Shown here piece by piece: positions 31,231 to 60,732 of a stretch of 64,000 nucleotides of DNA. This stretch comes from Chryseobacterium indologenes. GTDB taxonomy: Bacteria; Bacteroidota; Bacteroidia; Flavobacteriales; Weeksellaceae. Each line of letters starts with the position of its first letter. Position 1 is the first letter of the stretch. A program made the position numbers and the translations under genes. The stretch spans positions 248,001-312,000 of the forward strand of contig NZ_CP074372.1 in NCBI RefSeq assembly GCF_018362995.1, written 5' to 3'. The notes under the pieces were generated by a model. That model was not told where the DNA came from, ran no database searches, and saw only the letters and a list, made by a program, of their open reading frames with translations.

Positions 31231-32055
31231 TTGGCTTCAGAAATACATGATAATTATAAGGTATCATTAAGAAGAAGCTGTGATTTGGTAATTCTGCAAC
31301 GAACGGTTTATTACTATCAATCTCACCGTAGGGATGATACGGCCCTTAGAATGCGGCTGGTGGAGCTTTCACAAATTCGTGTCCGTTATGGCATTCAACG
31401 CTTGCAAGTTCTTCTCAGGCGTGAGGGTTGGAAAGATAATCATAAACGAGTGTATCGGATTTATTGTGAGGAAGGCTTGAATCTGCGTAGAAAGAAGAAC
31501 AAGAGAATAAAATCCGCAAGAAACAGAAAGCCTACGGATGGTACATCCTCCAGTTTACACGAATGCTGGAGCATGGATTTCATGAGCGATGCCTTGTTTG
31601 ATGGGAAGAGATTTAGGCTTTTCACTTTAGTTGATAATTATAGTAGAAAATGCTTGGCCATTGAGGCGGGAATTTCCATCAAGGGAGAAAACGTCACAGA
31701 AATATTAAAAAACATTACCTTTGAAGAGAAGGTTTTTCCCGAGCGTATCAAAATAGATAATGGTCCTGAATTTATCAGCAAGGAATTGGATAGATGGGCT
31801 TATGAAAAGAATGTAGAATTGGAATTCTCCAGACCTGGAAAACCTACTGATAATGCATTTATAGAGAGCTTTAACGGTTCATTGAGGGATGAGTGTCTAA
31901 GCGTAAATTGGTTTTTGTCGCTTCAGGATGCACAGGAAAAATTAAATGCATGGAAGTTGGATTATAATGATTACAGACCGCATAGCTCATTAGGAAATCT
32001 AACCCCGAATGAGTTCATCGAAATGCAATCAAAAAAGCAAATTTCTCTATTTTAG
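31231..32055 (+). CDS. IS3-family transposase OrfB (copy A)
   Basis: The 274-residue integrase domain has the DDE catalytic triad: Asp in CWSMDFMSDALFDG, Asp in IKIDNGPEF and Glu in AFIESFNGSLRDECL. The TTG start shown is nominal; the protein is expected mainly as a -1 frameshift fusion with OrfA. No stop or frameshift is visible, so the element looks able to move. The protein is identical to copy B at 49060. Confidence 0.9.
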   Translation: MASEIHDNYKVSLRRSCDLVILQRTVYYYQSHRRDDTALRMRLVELSQIRVRYGIQRLQVLLRREGWKDNHKRVYRIYCEEGLNLRRKKNKRIKSARNRKPTDGTSSSLHECWSMDFMSDALFDGKRFRLFTLVDNYSRKCLAIEAGISIKGENVTEILKNITFEEKVFPERIKIDNGPEFISKELDRWAYEKNVELEFSRPGKPTDNAFIESFNGSLRDECLSVNWFLSLQDAQEKLNAWKLDYNDYRPHSSLGNLTPNEFIEMQSKKQISLF

Positions 32056-32766: not shown

Positions 32767-32863
32767 GTGCTCCTTAAGATGACAAATATGGTGTTCGGCT
32801 ACCATCATTTTTAAAAAACTTATCTGTCTTTATATATTAAGTCCTTACTCAAAATATAAAGCG

Positions 32864-33276
32864 ATGGATAACAATATAAACGAAGAACTGAATACAGTCG
32901 AAAAAACAGGCGATACCTTACTGGTACTCCATATAGAATCCGGTACTGTTGGAAATATTAAGGGATTGGATGATAATGAGGAAGTAAATAGAGTAAGTCC
33001 TGAGGAGCTGAACCATGATGAAATGCTCAGTATTGACCGTAATGAGAATTCTTTTGCTGAGTTTTATTCCACGTTTTATAACCAGCTGAAAGATCCTTCA
33101 GAGTCTTCTTTTTTTTAAGGTAACGGAGTATGAAGCAAAACAGACGGCTGTAAATCTTCAGAAGTATTTTGAATAAGGCTTGTGATGAAGAGAAAAAAGA
33201 GCTGAAGCAGTATGAGATTTCTATTGATGTGGTGGAGGTGCATAGAAAGGCTGGGGAAGAGAATATGCTAAAGTAG
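32864..33276 (+). pseudogene. Broken copy of the DUF4099/DUF3945 gene
   Basis: It opens with MDNNINEELNTVEKTGDTLL, close to the intact gene at 43003 (MDSNKNDEWITIRKTGDTLL). The frame breaks in a T run at about 33113 and again near 33170. With both corrected it reads on to DVVEVHRKAGEENMLK and a stop at 33276. That covers about 140 of 428 residues; the DUF3945 part is gone. DNA similarity to the 43003 gene is obvious by eye. It lies behind an RHS-tail/lipoprotein pair, as the intact gene does. Confidence 0.75.
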
Positions 33277-33413: not shown

Positions 33414-33443
33414 TTGGGTGAAACTTTAAAAAGCTTAATTTTG
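33414..33443 (+). promoter_or_regulatory. Bacteroidota promoter before the T9SS/RHS cassette
   Basis: TTG (33414-33416), a 19-bp spacer, then TAATTTTG (33436-33443) match the Bacteroidota sigma factor consensus. The start codon of the T9SS gene is about 100 bp downstream. The leader contains a small hairpin GTGTAT-N7-ATACAC (33491-33509). A second -10-like TATCTTTG lies at 33377 without a well-placed -33 element. Confidence 0.6.
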
Positions 33444-33551
33444 CAGGCAGTAAAAACTTAACCATGAACAATAATTCCACTATACAATTTGTGTATTTCT
33501 ATTATACACGATTATAAACCACTATTCATTAACGTTAATTACAATATAAGC

Positions 33552-35102
33552 ATGAAAAAACTCTACACGGGTGCATTATTCTTATGTACTATGGGGATAT
33601 TAGCCCAGGAAGTACTCTGGCAGAAAGATATAAAGTCCAGTTCGCAGGATTTTTTAAACCAGGTTACTACTACCATTGATGGGCAATACCTTATTGCAGG
33701 AAGCAGTATCCAAACGGATAAACTCCAGCAAAACAGCAAACAAAACAATGGCTATGATTTTCACCTGATAAAATTGAATCAGCAGGGAGAACAGGTTTTC
33801 GAGAAATATTTATCAGGAAACAATCACGACTATTTATCTTCCACGGTTACTACCCAGGATGGTGGTTTTCTGATTTCTGGGACCTCATATTCAGAAAAAG
33901 GACTTGATAAAAAAGAAGACTCTAAGGGAGGTTCAGACATTTGGCTCATTCGGATCAATGAATTTGGTGATGAATTGTGGCAGAAAACATTAGGTACCTC
34001 TTCGAATGAAGAAGCTAAAGCAGTTATCCAGACTATAGATCAGGGATTCTTTGTTGCCGGGAATGTACAGAACTCCTCTAAAGGTTATGGTTCTAAGGAC
34101 GTCTGGATTGTAAGACTCGACAAAGAAGGGAAAATATTATCTGAACAAACATTGGGAGGACGCGGACTTGATGAAGTTGAAAAGATGATCCCAACGAAAG
34201 ATGGCGGAGCATTACTGGGAATTTATTCCAGAAGTGGAGTTGTAATTGGAGATAAGACGGGTAAGCAGACAGAAAACTTTGGTGAAGGCGACTACTGGAT
34301 TGTCAAGCTTGATAAAAATGGCAAAGTTGAATGGGAAAAGAATTTTGGAGGGAAAGATGATGACCATATCAGAACACTGGCATTAACTTCAAATGGTTTT
34401 ATTGTCGGTGGAGAATCCAGATCAGAAAGATCAGGAAACAAAACTGTCGGATTAGAAGAAGGAACAGATCTGTGGCTCATTTCCTTAAATGAAAGAGGTG
34501 AGCAGCAGTGGCAGAAATCCTACAATTTCAAGAATCGTGATATCCTGATGGGAATGAGTGTGATTCATTCAGCAGACGATAAATCATCCAAAGGAATTCT
34601 TTTAGGGGGCTATACTCAAGCTGAGGGAAGAATACAAACTAATGATGAAACCTTCTGGATGCTATATCTGGACCAAAATGGTAATGAGCAGTGGAGAAAA
34701 CACGTGGGTGGAGAATCAAGGAAAAAGGAGGAAAGGCTTTCAGATCTGAAACTCAATAGAGATGGTTCTATTATTCTTGCGGGAACAAGTGCAGAAGAGT
34801 TAGGTAAAGAAAACTGGAAGATTGTAAAGCTGGGAGACAAGCAAGTAAGTGAGCTTCTTCCCCAGTATGATATAAAGATCTATCCAAACCCTGTATCTGA
34901 TTATGCTTATGTAGAAATCGGTTTTGATTTTAAGGATGCAGATATTTTGTTGTACGACATGAGTGGAAGACAGCTTCAAAATATAAAAACTAAGAACAGA
35001 GTGACAAAGATCAATACTCAGGCTTTGGTACAGGGAGCTTATCTGGTGACGATAAAAACTGATTCGGGTAAAACTTCAAACGCAAAACTGATAAAAAAAT
35101 AA
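33552..35102 (+). CDS. T9SS-secreted beta-propeller-like protein heading the RHS cassette
   Basis: The start at 33552 is chosen because MKKLYTGALFLCTMGILAQE is a clear signal peptide; an upstream ATG at 33489 gives a non-signal extension. The 516-residue product contains repeats of about 60 residues with the pattern DxWxxKLDxxGxxxWxKxxGG, typical of quinoprotein-like propellers. It ends with a type A T9SS sorting domain (IKIYPNPVSDYAYVEI through to AKLIKK). It is therefore secreted or cell-surface. Its TAA overlaps the ATG of the RHS gene (TAATG), so the two are translationally coupled. Confidence 0.85.
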   Translation: MKKLYTGALFLCTMGILAQEVLWQKDIKSSSQDFLNQVTTTIDGQYLIAGSSIQTDKLQQNSKQNNGYDFHLIKLNQQGEQVFEKYLSGNNHDYLSSTVTTQDGGFLISGTSYSEKGLDKKEDSKGGSDIWLIRINEFGDELWQKTLGTSSNEEAKAVIQTIDQGFFVAGNVQNSSKGYGSKDVWIVRLDKEGKILSEQTLGGRGLDEVEKMIPTKDGGALLGIYSRSGVVIGDKTGKQTENFGEGDYWIVKLDKNGKVEWEKNFGGKDDDHIRTLALTSNGFIVGGESRSERSGNKTVGLEEGTDLWLISLNERGEQQWQKSYNFKNRDILMGMSVIHSADDKSSKGILLGGYTQAEGRIQTNDETFWMLYLDQNGNEQWRKHVGGESRKKEERLSDLKLNRDGSIILAGTSAEELGKENWKIVKLGDKQVSELLPQYDIKIYPNPVSDYAYVEIGFDFKDADILLYDMSGRQLQNIKTKNRVTKINTQALVQGAYLVTIKTDSGKTSNAKLIKK

Positions 35103-38100
35103 TGATGAAAAAGATATTCTTAATAATGGCACTGCCATTAATATCGAATGTTTCGATATGGGCACAGACACTACAACTGCCTAAAAATATACAATCTCCC
35201 AATGCTGCTTCTTTAGGGAAATACGGGGATGTACCAATGGATCTCTCTTCGGGAAGAGCCAATGTAAGCATACCTTTGTATTCTCTTAATGAAAATGGTA
35301 TTCCATTAGATATAAGTGTAAGTTATGATACAGGAGGAGTGAGAGTGGGTGATACCCCTGGATGGGTAGGACAAAACTGGACATTCAATGCAGGAGGTGT
35401 AATTACAAGAGTTGTTAAAGGTACTTCGTTCGACGAAAAATTCACCAATGATGTTCCTATGGGCTCCAGCCAATGGGGGATAGCGAGCGGTTATTATTAC
35501 TATACACCTGCCCTTAATGGGGCCCAGTGGAATAGTGTTAGTAATATGACAACAGTATTAAAAAACGGAGGCATAACCAATAGTACTTATCCAGCAGCAG
35601 ACCTGGAACCCGATATTTTTATTTTCAACTTTATGGGCCATGTAGGGAAATTCTTTCTGGACTCTGATGGAGTTTGGAAAGTATCTTCTAAGGATAATAT
35701 GAAGGTGGAAATCAATATGAATGATAAGATTACACCAATGAACTTTCCTGCTACCAATAATTTCAATCAGAGACCATTTTTAAAGGTTCTTGGTAAAATT
35801 ACCATGACTGATGATCAAGGCAATAAATATATATTCGGAGGTATACAGGATAATATAGAATATACCATTCCTGACTTCTATAATCAATTGGTGAATCCAG
35901 TTATTGCTAATGCTTGGTATCTTTCGGAAGTATATGATAAAGAAGGAACTAAGATTTATTCCTTTGAATATGAGAGAGGAGATTATATAGCATCCTTCTA
36001 TAATACGAATTCTTTTAGCGGATATAGCAAACAGTTTGATGGTAATATATTCGTTCCGGGGGTGGGATGTAGCGGCGGAAGCAGTATAAGTAATCAGGTC
36101 GTTGCTGCTGGACAGCTGATCATTCCTACTTATTTGAAATCCATTACTACAAAATCTGCAAGAACAATTAATTTCTCATCATCAATTAACAATTCACTGA
36201 AATACAGGTACAATAATGGAGACCCTACTCTAGACAGTGCTTTCTCCAATATATTAAGTTATCTGGCGGGGCTGGCCCTACCGGGAGATTATGAAAATGC
36301 GATGTTCTATTATATCAAAAGATTACAGAATGGAGTTACCCCAAATCCCAATGTCACATCAGGACACTTTGACTCGTATATCAATGCATTGAAATGGAGA
36401 AAATTAGATGGATTTGTAGCAAGAGACAGCAAAAACAATGTCTTAAAACAGGTTTCATTCAGCTATAATAATACCCCAGCTGAAAGATTGAAACTGGAAA
36501 AATTAACGGTGGATAATCAATTTGATCATACCTTCGAATACAATAATTTTAATCAGCTTCCGGGCTTGCTTTCTACTAATGTAGACCATTTCGGATATTA
36601 CAAGTCTACTCCTTTTTCTCTGGACTATAATTCACCTACAATTCATGAGCCTTCAAGGGAAACAGATCCTACAAAAGTGTATTTTGGAACCTTATCAAAA
36701 ATTACATATCCTTTGAAAGGGTATACAATATTTGAATATGAACCTCATACCTATTCCAAATATCTGGATTCAAACAGCAGCCTGGTTTCGGGGAATGGAA
36801 TTATCGGTGGGGTAAGGATAAAAAAAATGTCGGATTTTAGTGATCCACAAAATAAGATTGTAAAAGACTACAGCTATACCATTGATGCCAACTCTACTGT
36901 ATCCTCAGGAACATTGCTTCAAAAAAATGTCTATTATGTAAAGAATTTTCTTATTCCTACTGAGAATGGTATTCCTTACTATCAAACCCAGTTCAGTATA
37001 GGATCTGTAGTACAGCTTTCCAACTTGATGGGACCGCAGATTGAGTATTCAACAGTGGTTGAGAAAACAGAGGATAACGGATATATTGTCAATAATTTTA
37101 CTAATTATTCAGATTTTCCAAATCTACCTAATAGTGGAAAGCTGGGCCAGAATAATTCCATTTTTGATCCTCATACGGAGTTCGGTTATAAAAGAGGTCT
37201 TCCCAAAGAAAGAAGATTTTATAATTCAAGTAATGATCTGTTAAAAGAGGAAATTTTCACCTATAGTGAAACTTCTCCCCAAGCAGCAAGGGGGCTGAGT
37301 GGTAAATTTTTTCTTGCTTGTCCTCAATCTAATGGGCAGACACAAGAATTTGTTATTGCCGGAACTGCATATGAATTGTACTATTCTGACTTTAACCTTA
37401 CCACAAAAAAAACCAGAACTTATGGAAGTGCCGGGCAGTATTTTGAAATGGTTGAAAATAGCAATTTTTCCGATCAGGGAAACTTTGGGGATAATTTTCT
37501 GAAGAATAAATCCTTCATTGATACCAATGGGAAATCAATATCCGAGAATTACCTCTATTCTTTTGATAAAAATGGTACTGAGCCATACACAACCATGGTA
37601 AATCGAAGAGAGTACCCAGTTGTAGAAACGAGTAAACTTGCCAATCAGGAGCTGTTAAGTAAAACGATAACAGAGTATGCTCTTATTCCAACAGTGGCGT
37701 CGAATGGAACTGCTGTGGCTTCCCGAATATTTCCTCAAAAAGTATCGGAAGCTAAGGGTAATAATGCACTTGACGAAAAGTTGATCGTTGATAAATATGA
37801 TACTGACGGGCATATTTTGAAGGCACACCTACCAACCGGAAACTATACTTATTATTATTATGGTTACGATAACAAATATCCGATATTGAAGATAGAAGGT
37901 GTCGAGATTACAGATGAAAGTACTGTTTTAGGATATCTGGCAACGCTTAAGCCTTTGCTTAACGTAATCTCACCTAACTATACCCAAATTATCCAGCAGC
38001 AGGCGAATATCATTAATGCTCTGCCTAATCATCTTTGTACATTGTACACTTACAAGAATGAGTTTGGGGTTAGCAGTATCATGAATTCATCAGGTGTGAT

Positions 38101-38197
38101 TGAATATTATAACTATGATAATATTGGACGGTTGATGAATGTGAAGGATCAGAATGGAAAACTTGTAAAGAGTTTTACATATGAAATTAAAAACTAA
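35102..38197 (+). CDS. RHS-type protein, first half of a split cage
   Basis: The 1031-residue protein has a signal peptide (cleavage after SIWA). Its N-terminal segment is SLGKYGDVPMDLSSGRANVS with ISVSYDTGGVRVGDTPGWVG, an SpvB/RHS-entry type seen in flavobacterial RHS loci. YD-type repeats appear toward the end (KYDTDGHILKAHLPTGNYTY, IEYYNYDNIGRLMNVKDQNG). It lacks the RHS core motif and any toxin domain; these are in the next gene. It is coupled to the T9SS gene before it and overlaps or nearly abuts the next one, so the two RHS proteins probably work together at the surface. Confidence 0.82.
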   Translation: MMKKIFLIMALPLISNVSIWAQTLQLPKNIQSPNAASLGKYGDVPMDLSSGRANVSIPLYSLNENGIPLDISVSYDTGGVRVGDTPGWVGQNWTFNAGGVITRVVKGTSFDEKFTNDVPMGSSQWGIASGYYYYTPALNGAQWNSVSNMTTVLKNGGITNSTYPAADLEPDIFIFNFMGHVGKFFLDSDGVWKVSSKDNMKVEINMNDKITPMNFPATNNFNQRPFLKVLGKITMTDDQGNKYIFGGIQDNIEYTIPDFYNQLVNPVIANAWYLSEVYDKEGTKIYSFEYERGDYIASFYNTNSFSGYSKQFDGNIFVPGVGCSGGSSISNQVVAAGQLIIPTYLKSITTKSARTINFSSSINNSLKYRYNNGDPTLDSAFSNILSYLAGLALPGDYENAMFYYIKRLQNGVTPNPNVTSGHFDSYINALKWRKLDGFVARDSKNNVLKQVSFSYNNTPAERLKLEKLTVDNQFDHTFEYNNFNQLPGLLSTNVDHFGYYKSTPFSLDYNSPTIHEPSRETDPTKVYFGTLSKITYPLKGYTIFEYEPHTYSKYLDSNSSLVSGNGIIGGVRIKKMSDFSDPQNKIVKDYSYTIDANSTVSSGTLLQKNVYYVKNFLIPTENGIPYYQTQFSIGSVVQLSNLMGPQIEYSTVVEKTEDNGYIVNNFTNYSDFPNLPNSGKLGQNNSIFDPHTEFGYKRGLPKERRFYNSSNDLLKEEIFTYSETSPQAARGLSGKFFLACPQSNGQTQEFVIAGTAYELYYSDFNLTTKKTRTYGSAGQYFEMVENSNFSDQGNFGDNFLKNKSFIDTNGKSISENYLYSFDKNGTEPYTTMVNRREYPVVETSKLANQELLSKTITEYALIPTVASNGTAVASRIFPQKVSEAKGNNALDEKLIVDKYDTDGHILKAHLPTGNYTYYYYGYDNKYPILKIEGVEITDESTVLGYLATLKPLLNVISPNYTQIIQQQANIINALPNHLCTLYTYKNEFGVSSIMNSSGVIEYYNYDNIGRLMNVKDQNGKLVKSFTYEIKN

Positions 38198-38204
38198 TAA
38201 TCTG

Positions 38205-41200
38205 ATGAAGTCAATATATAGAATTGTTTTATTGGTACTTGTATTTAGTACCTCAATTATCAAAGCCCAATTTTCGAATTATTCCAAATATTACAATTGG
38301 AATCTGCTTACCACGTATTCCAATGGTGGTGGCGGTGGGGTAACATTGAGTATCACCAATAATGTACTCAGTCTTAGTTTTAGTGCTGGTTTTACGGAAA
38401 CCACTTTAAAACAAGGAAAAATAGGGCCAACTGATTATGTAGGAACGTTACCCAACACAGAAATTCCTGTTCCGGCTGGAAGCTTTTTTACTGATAAAGG
38501 ATACCGGTTCTTCATTGTTGATAATCAGTTAGCTATTTATCATAATACGCCCATTTCTTTAACTGGATTTTCGGGAACCATATCTGTGAATTTAACATCG
38601 CCAGTTCCCATACCCGCGGACATTTCGACGTACCTTTCTAACTGGACTCCGCAGAATAAGATAATGTCGGTAAACTACCTTACGGACCAAGGAGATTCTG
38701 GAAAGAAGAAAGCATCTATCGTATATTATGATGGTTTAGGAAGGGAATTGCAGATTGTTGCCAAAGGAGAGACACCTTCAGGAAAAGATTTGGTGACTCC
38801 TTTTGAGTATGATAACCTTGGAAGGAAGTCGAAGGATTTTTTACCCGTTCCAACCATGCAAAACAATGGTCTTTTAGTTGATGCAGCTACAATTTCAGGT
38901 TTAGCTTCATCTGTTTACAATGGTGAACCGGCATTTTCGGAAAATGTATTTGAAGCCTCTCCATTAAACAGGGTTTTGATGCAGTCAGCACCTGGAACGG
39001 CCTGGAAGAAAAACAGCGGACACGAAATAAAATTTACTGATGATGTAAATACAGTTTCTGACGAAGTAAAAAAATATAATGTTGATCTGGCAGTTGCTCA
39101 GGATATTTATAATCCTAAATTATCATTCAGTTCCACTTATGGGACAGGTAGCTTAATAAAAAAAGTAATCAAAAATGAGGATTGGACCTCTGCAAACGGA
39201 AACAACAACACTTCAGAAGAATTTATTAATAATGAAGATAGAACTGTTTTACGAAGAAAATATGTAGATGGGAAGAAAGCTGATACCTATTATGTTTATG
39301 ATATTTATGGCAATCTTACCTATGTTATTCCTCCTCTTGCCTCAGATGCAGTTAAAAGTCTGACAACGGGCTTCTTCCCTGATGTAACTCTTGACAATTT
39401 GTGCTATCAGTACAAATATGATAAGAAGAACAGGTTAGTAGAAAAGAAGCTTCCCGGAAAAGGCTGGGAATATCTGATTTATAATAAGGCCGATCAATTG
39501 GTGATGAGCCAAGATACAAATCTTAAAGATCAAGGTAAGTGGTTGGTAACCAAGTACGACCAGTTCGGTAGAGTGGTGTTTACAGCTATTACTAATAATA
39601 ATAGTACAAGACAGTCTTTGCAAACTACTATTACAGGAGCTGCTTATACCTTTGAGATAAGAAGTGCTGGCTCGTTTACCGTAAGCGGAATGCCTATTTA
39701 TTATACCAACAGGGCTCTCCCGGGAAGTCTGGCACAGGTCTTAAGTGTTAATTATTATGATTCCTATCCTGCAGGATATACTTTTAATCCTGCTTTTCCA
39801 ACGGATATTTTAGGAGAGCCAACATTAAATGCTATTCCTACACTTGAAGGTTTAAGTACCAAAAGCCTTCCTGTCCTTACTTTAGTAAAGAATATTGATG
39901 ACGATAATTGGTCAAAGGATTATACCTACTATGATAAGAAAGGAAGAGTGATAGGAACTTATTCCATCAATCATTTAGGAGGATATACTAAAACAGAATC
40001 CAAACTTGATTTTGCAGGGATAACAAAGCAGACTATAACAAAACATAAGCGTCTGGATAGTGATACTGAAAGAGTCATTACAGAAACGTTTGATTATGAC
40101 AACCAGAACAGACTGTTGGTACATAAGCACCAGGTAGACAGCAATCCAACAGAGATTCTGGCACAAAATACTTATAACGAGATTTCTCAGATTACCAATA
40201 AGAAAGTAGGAGGAACTGATGTTGCCAGTCCATTACAGTCTATAGATTACCAATATAATATAAGAGGCTGGCTGACTAAAATCAATGATCCGGCTGTTTT
40301 AAATGGAAAGCTCTTTGGGTATGAAATTAAATATAACAATCCTGTATACACTAATTTAGCATCAGGTAAGTATAATGGAAATATCGCAGAGGTAGATTGG
40401 AGAAATGCTTCGGAGGGTGCCTTGAAAAGATATTCTTATACTTATGACCCTCTTAACCGGTTGAAAGATGCTATCTATACAGAACCCAGCGCTACCAATC
40501 CCTATAATAATAATTTCAATGAAAATCTGAGCTATGATTTAAATGGAAATATTATGACCCTGAAAAGGAATGCTTATCCTGTATCAGGAACTACAGCCAC
40601 ACAGGTGGATGATCTTGAATATAAATATATAGGAAACCGTCTGAATCAGGTAATAGAAAATTCACCTAACAACTCAGGATATGAAGGTGGGAACAATATT
40701 ATTGGCTATGACTTTAATGGAAATATGACTGATATGAAGGATAAAGGAATCCAGTCCATAGTTTATAATCATATCAATCTGCTTGTTTCAATTAGTATGC
40801 AGTTTACTAATCCTGTTGGAAATATAAGCACAACAAATATAAATCATTTATACCGTGCTGATGGAGTGAAACTTCGTAAAACATACAGTCAGCAGGCTCA
40901 TATGGGGCTTCCAACAATACGAATGACGGATTATCTGGATGGGTTTCAGTATTCATATGAAGATGATGGAGGGATCTGTATCACATGCAAGACGGAATCG
41001 GCCTATGAATCGCAGGCTTATTCAACATTTAAACCTGTTCTTCCGCCGCTTGCGGCATGGAAACTAGATTTTGTAAGTACCCCAGAAGGGTTTTACAGTT
41101 TTGCAGAAAACCGTTATATTTACAACTATAAAGATCATTTAGGGAATGTAAGGGTAAGTTTTGGTAAGAACAATGCAGGGGTAGTTCAGACAATGGATGT

Positions 41201-42077
41201 CAATAATTATTATCCATTTGGGTTAAACCATATCGGAGGATCAAATTACTCAAACTTTGGAAGTTATTATAACTATAAGTTTGGAGGAAAAGAAATGCAG
41301 GAAACAGGCTGGCATGATTTCGGAGCGAGAATGTATATGAGTGATTTGGGCAGATGGGGTGTAATTGATCCATTGGCAGAGAAAATGACCAGATATAGTC
41401 CTTACAATTATGCTTTTAATAACCCGGTAATGTTTACAGATCCTGATGGCAGGAGCCCGGCCCATGTTGATCCATCAGAGATTTATAAGAAAGGAAATCA
41501 GCAACAGATAAAAGCTTTTGAATTTTTTGCGAAATCTAAAGAAGGTCAGGCTGTGATATCAAAATTTGCAGAAAAAGGGCAGGTTATTGCAGGTGTTCAA
41601 TATAAGGAAAGCGGAGAATTCCATAAGAAGGGAATGGATCTGACATTTGATAATAATATATCAAAAACGTCAGCTTCACAAGGCGCATCCGGTGAAACAA
41701 CTGTCGAAAACAAAAATGGGAGAACTAATTTTACCGTAAGTGTAGAGAATAATAATACTCCGAACAGAATGGCTAATCAGATTGAAACATTCGCTCATGA
41801 AACTTTTATACATGCATTTCCCGAGGCAAAGGATTTCGCTGATGATAAAAAATTTAATCAAAGCAGCGGATATGATAATAGACTTATTAATTTTTTAAAG
41901 AAACCGGGAAATGAAAAATATCAGAGCGTTAGATATTATGATCACTATCAGGAAAAGCAAAATCATACTGCAAGGACTCAATATATATCACCTATTTTAC
42001 AACAATATTATAAATCTGTAAAACAAAATGTTACAAAAGATTCCATTGATAAAAGCATTGACGGCTTTAGGTATTAA
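38205..42077 (+). CDS. DUF6443/RHS core protein with C-terminal toxin-like domain
   Basis: The start at 38205 (MKSIYRIVLLVLVFSTSIIK, signal peptide) is preferred; an ATG at 38181 would overlap the upstream gene by 17 bp. Of about 1290 residues, the first part carries the DUF6443 pattern (SIVYYDGLGRELQIVAKGET, PFEYDNLGRKSKDFLPVP). Many YD repeats follow, then the RHS core DHLGNVRVSFGK with FGARMYMSDLGRWGVIDPLA and the boundary NPVMFTDPDGRSPAH. The variable C-terminus of about 210 residues contains AHETFIHAFPEA (His at about 1198) and later DHYQEKQNH, suggesting a zinc-metallopeptidase-like toxin. The toxin activity is inferred. Confidence 0.82.
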   Translation: MKSIYRIVLLVLVFSTSIIKAQFSNYSKYYNWNLLTTYSNGGGGGVTLSITNNVLSLSFSAGFTETTLKQGKIGPTDYVGTLPNTEIPVPAGSFFTDKGYRFFIVDNQLAIYHNTPISLTGFSGTISVNLTSPVPIPADISTYLSNWTPQNKIMSVNYLTDQGDSGKKKASIVYYDGLGRELQIVAKGETPSGKDLVTPFEYDNLGRKSKDFLPVPTMQNNGLLVDAATISGLASSVYNGEPAFSENVFEASPLNRVLMQSAPGTAWKKNSGHEIKFTDDVNTVSDEVKKYNVDLAVAQDIYNPKLSFSSTYGTGSLIKKVIKNEDWTSANGNNNTSEEFINNEDRTVLRRKYVDGKKADTYYVYDIYGNLTYVIPPLASDAVKSLTTGFFPDVTLDNLCYQYKYDKKNRLVEKKLPGKGWEYLIYNKADQLVMSQDTNLKDQGKWLVTKYDQFGRVVFTAITNNNSTRQSLQTTITGAAYTFEIRSAGSFTVSGMPIYYTNRALPGSLAQVLSVNYYDSYPAGYTFNPAFPTDILGEPTLNAIPTLEGLSTKSLPVLTLVKNIDDDNWSKDYTYYDKKGRVIGTYSINHLGGYTKTESKLDFAGITKQTITKHKRLDSDTERVITETFDYDNQNRLLVHKHQVDSNPTEILAQNTYNEISQITNKKVGGTDVASPLQSIDYQYNIRGWLTKINDPAVLNGKLFGYEIKYNNPVYTNLASGKYNGNIAEVDWRNASEGALKRYSYTYDPLNRLKDAIYTEPSATNPYNNNFNENLSYDLNGNIMTLKRNAYPVSGTTATQVDDLEYKYIGNRLNQVIENSPNNSGYEGGNNIIGYDFNGNMTDMKDKGIQSIVYNHINLLVSISMQFTNPVGNISTTNINHLYRADGVKLRKTYSQQAHMGLPTIRMTDYLDGFQYSYEDDGGICITCKTESAYESQAYSTFKPVLPPLAAWKLDFVSTPEGFYSFAENRYIYNYKDHLGNVRVSFGKNNAGVVQTMDVNNYYPFGLNHIGGSNYSNFGSYYNYKFGGKEMQETGWHDFGARMYMSDLGRWGVIDPLAEKMTRYSPYNYAFNNPVMFTDPDGRSPAHVDPSEIYKKGNQQQIKAFEFFAKSKEGQAVISKFAEKGQVIAGVQYKESGEFHKKGMDLTFDNNISKTSASQGASGETTVENKNGRTNFTVSVENNNTPNRMANQIETFAHETFIHAFPEAKDFADDKKFNQSSGYDNRLINFLKKPGNEKYQSVRYYDHYQEKQNHTARTQYISPILQQYYKSVKQNVTKDSIDKSIDGFRY

Positions 42078-42774
42078 TTTAGCCTTAGTGAGTACTGTTG
42101 TACAGTGCAAGGAGAAAAAGGAGAATACGGAAGTACTATTTTTGAAGAATGACGGTCAGTATTCATTTCTCATTGAAGCTCCTTCAACGATAGCATATAG
42201 CACCCCCTCAGCTATGGAGCTTATATCCAAAACTGAGGGAAACAAAAGTAATGTAATATTTGCAGATCAATTAAAAGAATTCAGGCCATACAAATTTGTT
42301 TCTGAGCAAGAGAATTATAATAATATTTACGTTTCTAATGTACTCGGAGAAACAAATTTTAGCAATAATAATCTGTTTGAATATGATGTTCAGATAAGTC
42401 AATCAGGAGTTTTAAAGTCAAATATTTATTATCCCTATGATCTAAAAGGAAGCTATGAATTTAAAATAGATAGGCACACAAGCAAAATTTTGGGACAGCT
42501 GCTTTACAAAATTTCTTTAGAAGATAGGAAAAATAACAAAGTATCTCCAGATGCTAAGTTGAATAATGTAATTGTTTTGGAAGATGATAGAAGGAGAAAT
42601 GAAGTTTTTACCCATGAAAACAATGCCCAAAATAATCTAGAATATTCTTTGCTTCTGGCTTGGATAAATAAGTTATTATTGGAAAATATTAATAGAGCCA
42701 ATAAAATAGATCATTTAGATATTCCTTCCATTCAGTATGTGGAAAGGTTAGATATTCCACCTGATATGAAATAG
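42028..42774 (+). CDS. Lipoprotein overlapping the RHS toxin end, candidate immunity protein
   Basis: The 248-residue protein begins 50 bp inside the 3' end of the RHS gene in another frame. The N-terminus has a hydrophobic stretch and VSTVVQCKEKKE, which fits a lipobox with lysines rather than acidic residues after Cys, so it probably stays periplasmic. No known family was recognised. A small lipoprotein gene directly behind an RHS toxin domain, with overlapping translation, is the classic place for immunity. A terminator at 42851 closes the unit. Confidence 0.65.
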   Translation: MLQKIPLIKALTALGINLALVSTVVQCKEKKENTEVLFLKNDGQYSFLIEAPSTIAYSTPSAMELISKTEGNKSNVIFADQLKEFRPYKFVSEQENYNNIYVSNVLGETNFSNNNLFEYDVQISQSGVLKSNIYYPYDLKGSYEFKIDRHTSKILGQLLYKISLEDRKNNKVSPDAKLNNVIVLEDDRRRNEVFTHENNAQNNLEYSLLLAWINKLLLENINRANKIDHLDIPSIQYVERLDIPPDMK

Positions 42775-42850
42775 TAAAATAAAGTTAACTTTTCATATTT
42801 ATAAAATTCCTTTCTTTCTCGGAAAGTTTTTGAGTTTGAATTGATATAAG

Positions 42851-42877
42851 AAAATCCCGCAGAAGCGGGATTTTTTT
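42851..42877 (+). terminator. Terminator of the RHS cassette
   Basis: AAAATCCCGC-AGAA-GCGGGATTTT followed by a T run, 77 bp after the lipoprotein gene stop. The rest of the gap to 43002 holds nothing recognisable. Confidence 0.88.
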
Positions 42878-43002
42878 ATTCTTTCAAGTAATCTTTTTAT
42901 TTTCCCTGCCGATCTTAATGTCAACTATGACCTTTCAACTGCCATTACTTAAAAGAAACCTGTCCGACTTTATATCTTACTTGGTACACAATAATTTAGG
43001 TC

Positions 43003-44289
43003 ATGGATAGCAATAAAAACGATGAATGGATTACTATTAGGAAAACAGGTGATACCTTACTGGTGCTCCATCATGAAACGGATACAGTAGGAATTGTTAA
43101 GGGATTGGGGGAGAATGGGGAAGTGGTTAGTGTGGGTCCTGAAGACTTGGACGGTGATGAAATGCTTAGTATTGAACGCAATGAGAGTTCTTTTGCTGAG
43201 TTTTATTTAACGTTTTATCACCAGCTGAAAGAGCCTTCGGAGTTTTCGTTTTTTAAAGTAACGGAGTATGAAGCAAAGCAGACGGCTTTAAACTTACAGA
43301 AGTATATGGATGAGGCTACGGATGATGTGAAACAGGTATTAAAGAAGTATGAGATTTCCATTGATGTGGTGGAGGCACATAGAAAGGCGGGAGAGGGGAA
43401 AACAGCAGGTAAGGGAAAGGATGCAGGAAACAGGTATGTATATACGGCTGAACAGGTGGACTGGAAGATGATGGAGAAGCTGGGCTGGAATAAGGAAAGA
43501 CTGGAAGAGTTGGGGGCTTTGGAACCAATGCTGAAAGGATATAAAACCCCGATGCTTGTTCCGGTACATATTGAACTGGGGAAGGTATCAGGTACGATTG
43601 AAGCGAGGCTTTCTCTTCAGGCTAATGATTTTGGAGAAGTGGAACTCAGGTTTCATCTGGTAAGAAGAATGCCCGATTTTTCCAAGCCTTTCTTTGGGCA
43701 TGTATTTTCAGAAGAGGATAAAAGGAATCTGATGATAAGTGGGAATATGGGAAGGGTGGTGGATCTGGCTCATGGAATTACAGGGGAGACAGTGCCTTCT
43801 CTTATCAGCAGGGATAGGTTGACCAATGAGTTGGTGCAGGTGAGGGCTGAGTGGGTGAGAATTCCGCTGGTGATTAAAGGAGTGACTTTGGATCAGAAGC
43901 AGAGAAAGATATTAAGGGAAGGAAAACCGCTGTTTATTGAAAATATGCTTTCAGCGAGGGGGACCCTGTTTAATGCAGCGGTTCAGTATAATGCGGATAA
44001 AAGATATGTGGAGTTTTTGCTCGGTAAGAATGTAAGGAGAATAGGAGTGGGAGATTTCAGGCAGGTTCCGGAGGTGTTCAGAGGGAAGAGGCTTAAGAAG
44101 TGGCAGGTAGAGAAACTGAATAAAGGAGAGGTGGCGTATGTGGATGGGTTGGTGGATAGAAATGGGAAGGGGTATCAGGGGTATTTGAGGTTTGATAAGA
44201 GGATGGGGAAGTTTGAGTTTTCGTTTAGGAATGTGTGGAAGGGGGAGAAGAAAGAGGAGAAGAGTAGGAAAAGAGGAAGGGGGATGTGA
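43003..44289 (+). CDS. DUF4099/DUF3945 domain protein
   Basis: The 428-residue protein has an N-terminal part with GDTLLVLHHETDTVGIVKGL, a central DUF4099-like region (YTAEQVDWKMMEKLGWNKER, LKGYKTPMLVPVHIEL) and two DUF3945-like repeats (GVTLDQKQRKILREGKPLFI; LKKWQVEKLNKGEVAYVDGL). Such proteins are common in mobile elements of Bacteroidota, and their function is not established. It has no signal peptide and a basic C-terminus (KKEEKSRKRGRGM). The coding strand is unusually G-rich in its last 600 bp (GGG, AGG codons), unlike its neighbours. A broken relative lies at 32864. Confidence 0.78.
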   Translation: MDSNKNDEWITIRKTGDTLLVLHHETDTVGIVKGLGENGEVVSVGPEDLDGDEMLSIERNESSFAEFYLTFYHQLKEPSEFSFFKVTEYEAKQTALNLQKYMDEATDDVKQVLKKYEISIDVVEAHRKAGEGKTAGKGKDAGNRYVYTAEQVDWKMMEKLGWNKERLEELGALEPMLKGYKTPMLVPVHIELGKVSGTIEARLSLQANDFGEVELRFHLVRRMPDFSKPFFGHVFSEEDKRNLMISGNMGRVVDLAHGITGETVPSLISRDRLTNELVQVRAEWVRIPLVIKGVTLDQKQRKILREGKPLFIENMLSARGTLFNAAVQYNADKRYVEFLLGKNVRRIGVGDFRQVPEVFRGKRLKKWQVEKLNKGEVAYVDGLVDRNGKGYQGYLRFDKRMGKFEFSFRNVWKGEKKEEKSRKRGRGM

Positions 44290-44484: not shown

Positions 44485-46035
44485 TTACTTCTTTATCAAT
44501 TTCTGAACAGAAATTTTATTTCCTGAATTGATTTGTGACAAATATACTCCTTGCTTTGAGATCGGCAGTTGCAGCTGTTCTGGAGTCTGAGAGCATCTGA
44601 AATTTTCTTTTCCATAAATAAGTTTACCTGAATAATCAAAAATACGAACGCTTACTTTTCTCTCTTTTTCACATTTTATATTAATATTGTTTGAAAAAAC
44701 TGTCGGGAAAATCTTGAAGTTATCTGCTTTTTTAGACTCAACAATTCCTAAGTTATTGTATGTGTATTGTGCAAGTGCAAATTTGCTGTTGCTGGGAAAA
44801 TCTGAAGAAGAAGCAAATCCTGCAAGAATTATTTTTGAATCAAAAACCAACGATGAATACGGAATATCCTGAAATCCTGAAAAATCTGTAATTACAACAC
44901 CGGAATTTCCGAATTGTGTATCTAAAATCCCAGATAGATTAAATTTCATCATCGCAAAATTTTCATTACCATTGGTCGCCGAGTATGTAGAACCAAATGC
45001 GATAATATTATTTGAAGAATCTAATTTCATATTTCTCAGCTGACCTCCGATACTTGGAAGAAGTGTCTGTACAACACCGTTCGTTCCGAAAGAATTTTCA
45101 AAAGAACCATCCACATTGAATTTTATCACCGTAAAGTTAGATGAAACATTGTTATTGCTTGATGAGAATGATTCTCCGCCCAATAAAATACTTCCGTCAC
45201 TTAAAACAATATTGGTATTTGATAGTGAGCTACCTATATTCGTAACATTAAAATATCTGTATCCTACGGTGGAAAATGAAGTATCCAAAGTTCCGTTTGG
45301 TAACAATCTTAATATAAACATTCTACCTTGGTTGGAGCCTGTCGTCAGCAAAAGATAGCCTGAACAAACGATTGTTCCATTTGGAGCAATATTTACGGCA
45401 TTCAAATAATGGCGGTGATTAACAGGTGCAATAGTGAATAGTCCGGTATTATTAAACGTAGTATCAAATTGACCGTTCTGTAATAAACGCAAAACGTAAC
45501 CTTCTGTCAAAGCATTCGTGCCTCTTTTGTTGCCGACCACAATTATTTTTCCGTCAGATTGCAGTTCACCGTTAAAGACATTGTCATCTGACTGAGCGCC
45601 AAAATTGATTTCCAGAATACCGTTTGTACCGAAATTTGTAACATAATTTCCATTTTCATCAACTTTACAGACGATGATGTTAAAATAGCCGTCGGCGGCA
45701 AGCTTAGTTCCGAGAATGATCATCTCGTTGTTGCTTGTCTTTAATATTTTTTCAATTGATTTAAACGGAAGCTGTTTGATTCCGCTGCTCTGAAAAGAAG
45801 TGTCAAAAGAACCGTCAGAATTGTGTCTCACAAGATAAGCGCTGGTATTGTCAGTACCTCCAACCAGTATTTTACTGTTGCTCACAGCAATCATCGACCC
45901 AATTTTCTCAATATTTGCGTTTGCATTGATGTCATAAACCATTTTTCCATTGGTTCCAAAATTATTATCAAGTACCTGAGCAAAAAAGAGGTGTACAGAT
46001 GATAACAAAACAATAAAGATCGCTTGATATTTCAT
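44485..46035 (-). CDS. T9SS-secreted delta-60 repeat protein
   Basis: The 516-residue protein has a signal peptide (cleavage after LFFA) and about seven delta-60-type repeats with the pattern FDxSFGxxGxxxxxxxxxxxxxxxxxQxDGKIxxxG, which form a beta-propeller. A type A T9SS sorting domain follows (NFKIFPTVFSNNINI up to VQKLIKK). It is probably a cell-surface or secreted protein of unknown binding. The gene is complete; the IS remnant begins just past its stop. Confidence 0.85.
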   Translation of the reverse strand: MKYQAIFIVLLSSVHLFFAQVLDNNFGTNGKMVYDINANANIEKIGSMIAVSNSKILVGGTDNTSAYLVRHNSDGSFDTSFQSSGIKQLPFKSIEKILKTSNNEMIILGTKLAADGYFNIIVCKVDENGNYVTNFGTNGILEINFGAQSDDNVFNGELQSDGKIIVVGNKRGTNALTEGYVLRLLQNGQFDTTFNNTGLFTIAPVNHRHYLNAVNIAPNGTIVCSGYLLLTTGSNQGRMFILRLLPNGTLDTSFSTVGYRYFNVTNIGSSLSNTNIVLSDGSILLGGESFSSSNNNVSSNFTVIKFNVDGSFENSFGTNGVVQTLLPSIGGQLRNMKLDSSNNIIAFGSTYSATNGNENFAMMKFNLSGILDTQFGNSGVVITDFSGFQDIPYSSLVFDSKIILAGFASSSDFPSNSKFALAQYTYNNLGIVESKKADNFKIFPTVFSNNINIKCEKERKVSVRIFDYSGKLIYGKENFRCSQTPEQLQLPISKQGVYLSQINSGNKISVQKLIKK

Positions 46036-49059: not shown

Positions 49060-49884
49060 CTAAAATAGAGAAATTTGCTTTTTTGATTGCATTTCGATGA
49101 ACTCATTCGGGGTTAGATTTCCTAATGAGCTATGCGGTCTGTAATCATTATAATCCAACTTCCATGCATTTAATTTTTCCTGTGCATCCTGAAGCGACAA
49201 AAACCAATTTACGCTTAGACACTCATCCCTCAATGAACCGTTAAAGCTCTCTATAAATGCATTATCAGTAGGTTTTCCAGGTCTGGAGAATTCCAATTCT
49301 ACATTCTTTTCATAAGCCCATCTATCCAATTCCTTGCTGATAAATTCAGGACCATTATCTATTTTGATACGCTCGGGAAAAACCTTCTCTTCAAAGGTAA
49401 TGTTTTTTAATATTTCTGTGACGTTTTCTCCCTTGATGGAAATTCCCGCCTCAATGGCCAAGCATTTTCTACTATAATTATCAACTAAAGTGAAAAGCCT
49501 AAATCTCTTCCCATCAAACAAGGCATCGCTCATGAAATCCATGCTCCAGCATTCGTGTAAACTGGAGGATGTACCATCCGTAGGCTTTCTGTTTCTTGCG
49601 GATTTTATTCTCTTGTTCTTCTTTCTACGCAGATTCAAGCCTTCCTCACAATAAATCCGATACACTCGTTTATGATTATCTTTCCAACCCTCACGCCTGA
49701 GAAGAACTTGCAAGCGTTGAATGCCATAACGGACACGAATTTGTGAAAGCTCCACCAGCCGCATTCTAAGGGCCGTATCATCCCTACGGTGAGATTGATA
49801 GTAATAAACCGTTCGTTGCAGAATTACCAAATCACAGCTTCTTCTTAATGATACCTTATAATTATCATGTATTTCTGAAGCCAA
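49060..49884 (-). CDS. IS3-family transposase OrfB (copy B)
   Basis: The protein is identical to the OrfB at 31231 (274 residues, DDE residues in MDFMSD, IKIDNGPEF and AFIESFNGS). It is expected as a frameshift fusion with OrfA. Confidence 0.9.
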   Translation of the reverse strand: MASEIHDNYKVSLRRSCDLVILQRTVYYYQSHRRDDTALRMRLVELSQIRVRYGIQRLQVLLRREGWKDNHKRVYRIYCEEGLNLRRKKNKRIKSARNRKPTDGTSSSLHECWSMDFMSDALFDGKRFRLFTLVDNYSRKCLAIEAGISIKGENVTEILKNITFEEKVFPERIKIDNGPEFISKELDRWAYEKNVELEFSRPGKPTDNAFIESFNGSLRDECLSVNWFLSLQDAQEKLNAWKLDYNDYRPHSSLGNLTPNEFIEMQSKKQISLF

Positions 49885-59025: not shown

Positions 59026-60732
59026 ATGAAAAAAGCAACTTTATTTTTTATTTTGAGTAGTACGGTTCTCTATTCACAAGCTGGAAATATTGGAATAAAT
59101 ACTACGGCACCTGGCTCCAGCCTGACTGTCAATGGTTCTTTGGCAGCGAAATACAACGCCATTACATCTGCAGCGTATACAATGACTTCTTCAGATTTTC
59201 ATATTTCGTATAATGGGACAGCAAATGCTGTATTTACATTACCAACTGCTATTTCGGGAGATGGTAACTTTAAGGGTCGTATGTATACCATTAAAAATAA
59301 TACGGCTTTTACCATTACGGTAAATCCTGCAGCTACAGAAACCATTAATGGTAATGCCAGTGCTACCATAGGCCCTAACCAAAGCTTACAGTTAATCAGC
59401 ACAGGTCTTACAGGAGCTGCTTCCACATGGGAATTATCAGGAAGCAATTCTGCGGTGGCAACTAATGTAACGGCAAGCAACGGACTTACCACTGTAGGTA
59501 ATGATGTGAGACTTGGCGGTACACTTTTGCAGAATACAGCAATTGACTATGCGGATAAGGCCTTATATTTCAGAAGCAATGTTGATGGATTCGGGCTTAC
59601 AGCAATCAGTAATAGCAATCCGGGAACAAATGCTGCTGCACTTTTGCAGTTTACCAATAATACCGGCAGTTCTCTGAACATGTTTCTAAACTCTTCTACA
59701 AAAACTACAGACGGTGGTGCCAATGCATCAACAATCAATAGTGTGGGAGGGCCTCTAACTGTGGCTGGTAATAATAATGTGGCACAGTTCAGGCTAAGCC
59801 AGTTAGGCGGTGGTGATTATCTTTATAACAATGATAGAAAGCTTAATTTCAACGGAGACGGCGATATTACAGCCTTTGGTACTGCAGGAAATGCTGTTAA
59901 TGCTTATAATGGCCTTCTTACTTTAAAAGGAAACAGCAGTATTGCGTCATTTTCTAAGGTAACACTGGGCAGTACCGGTCTTAGATATTATTTTGCTGAT
60001 GATAGTACAGTGGATAAGAGTGTGCTTGACATCAATGGATACGGGGATATATACATGAAGAGATCTGATGGTTCTGGAAATATAATATCGTCTCAATATG
60101 GGCATCTTGACTTAAGTGGATTTAATGGTAATACGCCCAATGCTCCTACTCAGATTTATCTTGGTATAGATGGCCTTAAATATAGTTATAGTGGTTTTAC
60201 AAAAACTACGATTAATGGGATTGGAGATATAAAAACAGCAGGAGATGTGCAAGGACAAACATTATCTTCAATATCACATGCTTATGTAGGAAATAATCTA
60301 AGTGTAAGTGGAAGTGCTTATGTAACAGGAACTGTCACTGCAAGTGGAACTGTACTTACTTCAGATATGCGTTTGAAAACTCAGGTTAAAGAAATAGGAT
60401 ATGGTCTTAGTACCATTATGGCATTACAGCCAAAACAATATGAGTTGTCTGCCGATACCCAGATTAAAGATGGGAAACCTGCTGTAAATCCTGCTTTGAA
60501 GTCACAGCATAGGCTGGGTTTCCTTGCACAAAATCTTTATAAAATAGTTCCTGAAGCAGTCTATAAACCAAAAGATGATTCAAAAGAAGCCTGGGGTGTT
60601 GATTATACAGCACTTGTTCCAGCACTTACAAAGGCAATTCAGGAACAGGAGGCAGAGATAGAACAGCAAAGGAATAAAATTAATAAGTTGGAACTTGAAA
60701 TGGAGGGTATTAAGAAAAAGCTGGGCTTGTAA
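59026..60732 (+). CDS. Secreted protein with C-terminal S74 intramolecular chaperone domain
   Basis: The 568-residue protein has a signal peptide (cleavage near YSQA), a beta-rich, low-complexity middle (Thr/Asn/Gly-rich strands such as NATVTGTVTASGT-like runs) and a C-terminal peptidase S74 domain: SDMRLKTQVKEIGYGLSTI (Ser446 and Lys451, the expected dyad), RLGFLAQNLYKIVPEAV, WGVDYTALVPALTKAI and a coiled coil (EQEAEIEQQRNKINKLELEM). In phage tail spikes this domain trimerises the fibre and is cut off. Here it is on an exported host protein, perhaps a trimeric surface fibre. Confidence 0.87.
   Translation: MKKATLFFILSSTVLYSQAGNIGINTTAPGSSLTVNGSLAAKYNAITSAAYTMTSSDFHISYNGTANAVFTLPTAISGDGNFKGRMYTIKNNTAFTITVNPAATETINGNASATIGPNQSLQLISTGLTGAASTWELSGSNSAVATNVTASNGLTTVGNDVRLGGTLLQNTAIDYADKALYFRSNVDGFGLTAISNSNPGTNAAALLQFTNNTGSSLNMFLNSSTKTTDGGANASTINSVGGPLTVAGNNNVAQFRLSQLGGGDYLYNNDRKLNFNGDGDITAFGTAGNAVNAYNGLLTLKGNSSIASFSKVTLGSTGLRYYFADDSTVDKSVLDINGYGDIYMKRSDGSGNIISSQYGHLDLSGFNGNTPNAPTQIYLGIDGLKYSYSGFTKTTINGIGDIKTAGDVQGQTLSSISHAYVGNNLSVSGSAYVTGTVTASGTVLTSDMRLKTQVKEIGYGLSTIMALQPKQYELSADTQIKDGKPAVNPALKSQHRLGFLAQNLYKIVPEAVYKPKDDSKEAWGVDYTALVPALTKAIQEQEAEIEQQRNKINKLELEMEGIKKKLGL

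What the first reader, a model, noticed from the sequence alone, without database searches (positions are those of the whole stretch)
33414..42877. Coupled T9SS propeller, split RHS cage and lipoprotein: possible two-part surface toxin system
Seen: promoter, T9SS-sorted propeller protein, signal-peptide RHS entry protein (TAATG overlap), RHS core protein with a variable tail, a lipoprotein gene overlapping that tail by 50 bp, then a terminator. Known: RHS proteins form cages that release C-terminal toxins. Inference: the cage is split over two exported chains and displayed with the help of the T9SS protein, giving a contact-dependent system unlike T6SS-RHS.
Basis: partly seen in the sequence, partly recalled or inferred. 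Interest (0 to 1): 0.72.

Follow-up and report, generated by a model that had tools for sequence, protein, structure and literature searches.

The report
Split-cage surface toxin with swappable parts
This Chryseobacterium-like bacterium carries six copies of a probable bacteria-against-bacteria toxin made of two cage halves, each preceded by a surface-sorted propeller protein and followed by a probable protection gene; unusually, the first cage half is exchanged between copies almost independently of the poison, so these weapons appear to be built from two swappable modules.

Summary
Window 33552-42774 encodes a T9SS type A-sorted propeller (PROP), a signal-peptide RHS chain (RENT), an RHS/DUF6443 chain with a C-terminal tail (RCORE) and a lipoprotein-like gene, followed by a strong terminator. 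The genome has six such loci; among 129 related loci surveyed RENT precedes RCORE in 126 and PROP precedes RENT in 114. RENT's model (pLDDT 86) matches the first half of RHS cages and the TcB chain of Tc toxins; RCORE matches TcC by sequence. A cage split this way has precedent. The tail is variable, has a conserved HExxxH, and is paired with its downstream gene: related tails have related downstream genes in 22 of 30 pairs, unrelated tails in 1 of 6184. New here: most of RENT is a second variable module, exchanged between conserved flanks and assorting almost freely with the tail, while PROP is kept alike within genomes. T9SS display is inferred: in the window only PROP has a sorting tail, and T9SS adjacency of rhs genes is already in print for Apibacter. 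Toxicity, immunity, export and chain interaction are untested. Verdict: new variant of a known kind.

The parts
33414..33443 (+). promoter-like motif TTG-N19-TAnnTTTG (Bacteroidetes type; consensus recalled)
   Evidence: read, placed; kept in L017 and L018, not found in own paralogues
33552..35102 (+). PROP: signal peptide, beta-propeller repeats, T9SS type A C-terminal sorting domain
   Evidence: PF18962 4.4e-11, TIGR04183 2.2e-11; profile of 8 PROPs matches CylK 4e-15
35102..38197 (+). RENT: signal-peptide RHS chain, first half of the cage (TcB-like)
35102..37670 (+). variable body of RENT (approximate; boundary carried over from own-genome paralogues)
   Evidence: DNA blocks; protein identities
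37671..38197 (+). conserved end of RENT, the seam with RCORE (approximate)
38181..42077 (+). RCORE: signal peptide, DUF6443, RHS core, C-terminal tail (TcC-like second cage half)
   Evidence: PF20041 4.6e-34, TIGR03696 6.6e-14, TcC chains from 7.4e-16 over the end of the core
41454..42074 (+). tail, candidate toxin domain (207 aa)
   Evidence: variable between paralogues; matches in 21 of 173 genus genomes, some only fragments
41796..41813 (+). HExxxH metal-site-like motif in the tail
   Evidence: invariant in 7 of 7 aligned tails; present in 15 of 20 tail loci, the other 5 being fragments or broken
42028..42774 (+). candidate immunity gene, lipoprotein-like, overlaps the tail by 50 bases
42846..42879 (+). 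intrinsic terminator
   Evidence: -19.7 kcal/mol, z -7.8

Best explanation
A polymorphic, probably antibacterial RHS toxin-immunity locus with a cage made of two exported chains. RENT (TcB-like) and RCORE (TcC-like) leave the cytoplasm by Sec, close into one RHS shell around the tail, and the tail is freed by the conserved core that precedes it (shown: homology and a model of RENT; inferred: assembly and cleavage). The tail (HExxxH, probably a metalloenzyme) is the poison and the overlapping lipoprotein-like gene its immunity (shown: tail-gene pairing; inferred: activities). The T9SS-sorted propeller PROP takes the cage across, or holds it on, the outer membrane, because neither cage chain of the window has a T9SS tail (inferred). 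RENT's variable body is a second exchangeable module, joined to RCORE by a conserved seam, and most likely sets target recognition or gating (inferred).
For: RENT upstream of RCORE in 126 of 129 loci, PROP upstream of RENT in 114 of 129. In the three genomes that I matched fully by position, close PROP copies and DUF6443 genes lie one to one: 6 and 6 in our own, 7 and 7 in G008, 4 and 4 in G010 (read). RENT model: all 26 Foldseek hits with E<=0.001 are RHS, Tc or teneurin chains. RCORE: best PDB sequence hits are TcC. Tail and downstream gene paired: 22 of 30 related-tail pairs against 1 of 6184 unrelated and 0 of 23 with the same RENT body but unrelated tails. This immunity gene occurs in 5 of 173 genus genomes, each time at this tail or its remains. 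Orphan core-tip ORFs downstream in 39 of 129 loci. T9SS SprA in 38 of 38 genomes, necessary but not discriminating.
Against: No experiment. No known family for the tail: no Pfam, NCBIfam or PDB sequence match worth trusting. RCORE's model failed (pLDDT 36.5), so the two-chain cage was not modelled; its TcC match covers only the end of the core. 8 of 30 related-tail pairs have no detectable kinship of downstream genes, including L133, whose tail is related to ours but whose lipoprotein is not. 15 of 129 loci lack PROP in the expected place, only 3 of them for want of upstream sequence (L116, L146, L198); 3 of 3 fetched loci of G037 are among them. PROP and DUF6443 numbers differ in G034 (5 close PROP, 7 DUF6443). 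By the simple leader rule PROP passes in only 73 of 103, perhaps because start codons were taken too early. Foldseek TM-scores are low (0.07-0.26 for the 26 hits), as may be expected for a half shell but weak as proof.
Confidence: 0.62

Rival explanations
1. The cages are T6SS effectors; PROP is a neighbour without a role in their delivery.
For: A T6SS sheath gene (PF17541) is in the own genome and in 36 of 38 genomes. Rhs effectors of T6SS are common (established).
Against: Both chains begin with hydrophobic Sec-like leaders (RENT 118 of 126, RCORE 125 of 129; simple hydropathy rule); no PAAR or VgrG domain hit in the window's chains; PROP is the usual neighbour (114 of 129); G038 has no PF17541 hit, yet 3 of the 3 loci fetched there (of 5 DUF6443 matches) have PROP. 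The 38 genomes were not a random sample: G037 and G038 were taken because they had RENT hits, and G037 has neither PF17541 nor PROP at its 3 fetched loci.
Confidence: 0.08
2. A free Tc-like toxin against eukaryotes, released without T9SS, with the downstream gene a chaperone or self-protection.
For: Homology to TcB and TcC.
Against: No TcA-sized, TcA-like gene was noticed when reading the ORFs around the window locus (only ten of them were scanned with profiles, and the rest of the genome was not searched); pairing of diverse tails with diverse downstream genes, 73 of 123 of which have a hydrophobic N-terminus, fits immunity; one to ten DUF6443 genes in each of 36 of 36 genus genomes fits competition.
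Confidence: 0.12
3. A surface cage that is not a weapon (adhesion or polymer binding); tails vary by drift and recombination.
For: Teneurins are RHS shells that act as adhesion proteins (recalled); PROP is surface-sorted.
Against: Tail-gene pairing, orphan tips with their own downstream genes, HExxxH conserved across tails only 34-40% identical to ours.
Confidence: 0.1
4. RENT's variability reflects a fit to the particular toxin (plug or chaperone for its own tail) rather than an independent function.
For: In RHS cages the N-terminal plug seals the toxin (PMC8765631, passages read). A weak association of RENT body and tail remains (rho 0.077).
Against: Same RENT body (>=60%) with tails >=40% alike in only 2 of 34 pairs; same tail (>=40%) with RENT bodies >=60% alike in only 2 of 26; RENT end follows RCORE start much more closely (rho 0.369).
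Confidence: 0.2

Closest known systems
Tc (ABC) toxin TcB-TcC cocoon
   Same: cage split into two chains, first half TcB-like (fold), second half TcC-like with hypervariable C-terminus (sequence)
   Different: each chain has a signal-peptide-like leader; a separate T9SS-sorted propeller gene precedes the pair; an immunity-like gene follows; no TcA noticed nearby; no propeller match listed for RENT (not conclusive)
Rhs genes beside T9SS type A sorting-domain genes in Apibacter (PMC8125069; passages read)
   Same: rhs genes with SpvB and TcdB domains next to genes for T9SS type A-sorted proteins
   Different: here the cage is split over two chains with one propeller family before it; the passages read do not describe a variable first chain
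TANFOR polymorphic toxins of Bacteroidetes (PMC7073777; outline and passages read)
   Same: signal peptide, variable C-terminal toxin, immunity gene, T9SS substrates as neighbours, proposed T9SS export
   Different: defined by another N-terminal domain; no two-chain RHS cage in the passages read
T6SS Rhs effectors (RhsA, RhsP, Tse15, Tre23)
   Same: RHS shell fold, C-terminal variable toxin
   Different: one chain with a PAAR or VgrG-linked N-terminus, loaded in the cytoplasm (established knowledge)

Membership tests
RHS polymorphic toxin-immunity systems | conserved RHS core followed by a variable C-terminal domain | tested here: met
   TIGR03696; in own paralogues L013-L016 the tail windows are 13-27% identical after a conserved core
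RHS polymorphic toxin-immunity systems | downstream gene cognate to the tail | tested here: met
   22 of 30 against 1 of 6184
RHS polymorphic toxin-immunity systems | displaced orphan tips | tested here: met
   39 of 129 loci; none found downstream of the window's own copy
RHS polymorphic toxin-immunity systems | toxic tail, protective partner | not testable with these tools
   bench work needed
Tc toxin BC complex | TcB-like first chain | tested here: met
   fold level only:
Tc toxin BC complex | TcC-like second chain | tested here: met
   7.4e-16, over the end of the core; weaker matches to other RHS proteins too
Tc toxin BC complex | in-chain beta-propeller in TcB | tested here: inconclusive
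   no propeller chains among the listed rows; absence from the list does not exclude it
Tc toxin BC complex | TcA translocator | tested here: inconclusive
   none noticed among ORFs near the window locus; whole genome not searched
T9SS type A cargo | signal peptide and C-terminal sorting domain | tested here: met
   PROP only; RENT and RCORE of the window have no such hit
T9SS type A cargo | T9SS machinery in the genome | tested here: met
   SprA, GldM
T6SS Rhs effector | PAAR or other T6SS N-terminal domain | tested here: not met
   no such Pfam or NCBIfam hit in the window's RENT or RCORE at E<=0.1
TANFOR toxins | TANFOR N-terminal domain | not tested
   no NCBIfam hit of that name, but I did not check that the model is in the library

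The most novel reading that the evidence does not exclude
A two-slot combinatorial surface weapon: the RENT body (first cage half, perhaps recognition or gate) and the tail (poison, with immunity) are exchanged separately between loci through a conserved seam, while a propeller that each genome keeps alike, PROP, replaces in trans the propeller that Tc toxins carry inside TcB and docks every cage to the T9SS surface.
Probability: 0.28. Interest if true: 0.82.

Novelty: new variant of a known kind. Interest (0 to 1): 0.6.

Why it matters
Whether T9SS delivers interbacterial toxins is left open in the passages that I read (PMC7073777, PMC8125069). DUF6443 RHS genes were found in all 36 genus genomes tested, and the locus gives clear predictions for gene removals of PROP and of each cage half. 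A separately variable first cage half would mean that RHS weapons can diversify in two dimensions, not only at the C-terminal tip.

Tried and rejected

Rows dropped: 11 of 129 loci left out of the identity matrices (no RENT, RENT under 850 aa, or tail under 60 aa). Loci were taken from those printed (a capped list), not from all matches; one request was mistyped and returned 10 bases (L199, unused). Pair counts share loci, and L017 is nearly identical to the window, so pairs are not independent observations; Mantel p-values were small for every pair of matrices, so only the size of rho is used. DNA blocks were compared for four of the six pairs among L013-L016.

Full report
OBSERVATION. PROP (33552-35102) has a signal peptide, propeller repeats and a T9SS type A sorting domain (PF18962 4.4e-11, TIGR04183 2.2e-11); a profile of eight PROPs matches CylK in the PDB at 4e-15, an enzyme that carries a beta-propeller (recalled). 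RENT (35102-38197) has no family hit above a cut-off. RCORE (38181-42077) has DUF6443 and the RHS core, then a tail of 207 residues. The downstream gene starts 50 bases inside RCORE. A strong terminator follows.

COPIES. The genome (5.0 Mb, one contig) has six full RHS genes and four core-plus-tail fragments; three of the fragments follow one full copy and one follows another. Each of the six full copies has PROP and RENT before it and a small gene after it. Close relatives of the window's RENT exist in Chryseobacterium sp. GVT01B (99%), C. lathyri (93%), sp. JM1 (49%) and C. defluvii (51%). C. lathyri keeps PROP and RENT (96% and 93%) but carries a different tail and downstream gene.

SURVEY. 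DUF6443 was found in 38 of 38 genomes searched: 36 of the genus including our own, plus G037 and G038 from other families, chosen because they had RENT hits; it was found in 0 of 14 control genomes. From the matches printed there (a capped list) 119 stretches were read; with our six loci and the four named ones this makes 129 RHS genes. RENT lies upstream in 126 and PROP before it in 114; 108 have the plain order PROP-RENT-RCORE; 8 have one extra gene between RENT and RCORE, 6 of them with PROP. Of the 15 without PROP, 3 have too little upstream sequence; the other 12 seem to lack it, among them 3 of 3 fetched loci of G037.

TAIL AND PARTNER. Matches to our tail occur in 21 of 173 genus genomes, several only as fragments. 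HExxxH is present in 15 of 20 such loci; the 5 others are fragments or broken. The two His, the Glu and two downstream Asp are invariant in 7 of 7 aligned tails. HEXXXH has been described in metallopeptidase domains of polyvalent proteins (PMC5512222, one passage read). The downstream gene occurs in 5 of 173 genomes, always at this tail or its remains. In G075 and G168 only about the last 64 residues of the tail match beside the downstream gene, which is open in G075 and was reported with one in-frame stop in G168; in G185 both are broken. Over the survey, pairs of loci with related tails (>=35%) have related downstream genes in 22 of 30 cases, unrelated tails in 1 of 6184, and loci sharing a RENT body but not a tail in 0 of 23. 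This is the pattern of toxin and immunity.

TWO VARIABLE MODULES. Among own copies L013-L016, PROP is 93-97% identical; RENT is 15-45% in most windows of its body but 90-100% in its last windows; RCORE starts at 92-100% and its tail falls to 13-27%. At DNA level, in four of the six pairs compared, one block of homology ends at or within 40 bases of the PROP stop codon in three pairs (the fourth, L014-L016, runs 590 bases into RENT). Then in the three pairs nothing matches over the first 2.3-2.9 kb of RENT; in L014-L016 the unmatched stretch is about 1.4 kb, broken by a 192-base piece. A second block begins 522-532 bases before the RENT stop in the three pairs (796 in the fourth) and runs 1.7-2.75 kb into RCORE at 88-95% identity. 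Over 190 within-genome pairs the medians are PROP 89% (153 pairs), RENT body 16%, RENT end 43%, RCORE start 51%, tail 0; over 6713 between-genome pairs PROP is 77% and the rest 15, 40, 50 and 0%. So PROP is kept alike inside each genome while RENT bodies are not. Pairs with the same RENT body (>=60%) share a tail (>=40%) in 2 of 34 cases, and pairs with the same tail share a RENT body in 2 of 26 (in both counts these are LWIN-L017, nearly the same strain, and L020-L191). RENT end follows RCORE start (rho 0.369) much more than RENT body follows RCORE start (0.086) or tail (0.077). The plain reading is exchange of RENT bodies between conserved flanks, with a seam that keeps the two halves compatible.

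SECRETION. In the window only PROP of the three large proteins carries a T9SS tail. SprA is in 38 of 38 genomes and GldM in ours. A T6SS sheath gene (PF17541) is in 36 of 38, including ours; it was not found in G038, where 3 of 3 fetched loci (of 5) have PROP, nor in G037, where 0 of 3 fetched (of 5) have it. Matched by position, close PROP copies and DUF6443 genes are one to one in our genome (6), G008 (7) and G010 (4); in G034 the numbers differ (5 and 7); the other 12 genomes were not matched in full. This ties PROP to the cages but does not show export.

LITERATURE. PMC8125069 (passages read) reports that the majority of Apibacter rhs genes lie beside T9SS type A sorting-domain genes and that many of the proteins have SpvB and TcdB domains. 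Jana and colleagues (PMC7073777; outline and passages) propose T9SS export of TANFOR toxins. PMC6421346 (passages) describes a large rhs gene with SpvB/TcdB signatures and displaced tips in Ornithobacterium. In Tc toxins the TcB propeller caps the cocoon and docks on TcA (PMC11435725 and PMC8765631, passages). None of the passages read describes a separately variable first chain; that this is unreported rests on the searches in open-licence papers only.

VERDICT. Ordinary in kind (RHS toxin and immunity, Tc-like split), new in variant (leaders on both halves, a T9SS propeller as steady neighbour, exchangeable first half). Interest 0.6.

Noticed in passing
window 32846-33263 and 42985-43400: The 5' end of the DUF4099/DUF3945 gene (43003-44289) has a copy at 78-87% identity before the cassette, so the cassette lies between diverged direct repeats 10.1 kb apart; L017 shows similar ORFs on both sides.
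   Followed up: partly
window 31231-32055 (+) and 49060-49884 (-): Two transposase-like ORFs with identical translations flank the region in opposite orientation.
   Followed up: no
L094, L101, L163, L165, L172, L187, L188 (between RENT and RCORE): A signal-peptide gene of 283-447 aa sits between the two cage chains; six of the seven share an NVGIG-type start, and L187 matches Shufflon_N (1.5e-9). L190 has a 146 aa gene there that looks different.
   Followed up: partly
window 38271-38618: RCORE of the window type has about 116 extra residues after its signal peptide that the own-genome paralogues lack.
   Followed up: no
G000 C1:4659933-4661207: A T6SS sheath gene of the Bacteroidetes type is present in this genome, more than 190 kb from each of the six RHS loci.
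   Followed up: partly
window 44485-46035 (-): A second T9SS-sorted propeller-repeat protein (delta-60 repeats) lies just beyond the cassette.
   Followed up: no
window 59026-60732: A 568 aa protein with a Peptidase_S74 chaperone domain near its end.
   Followed up: no
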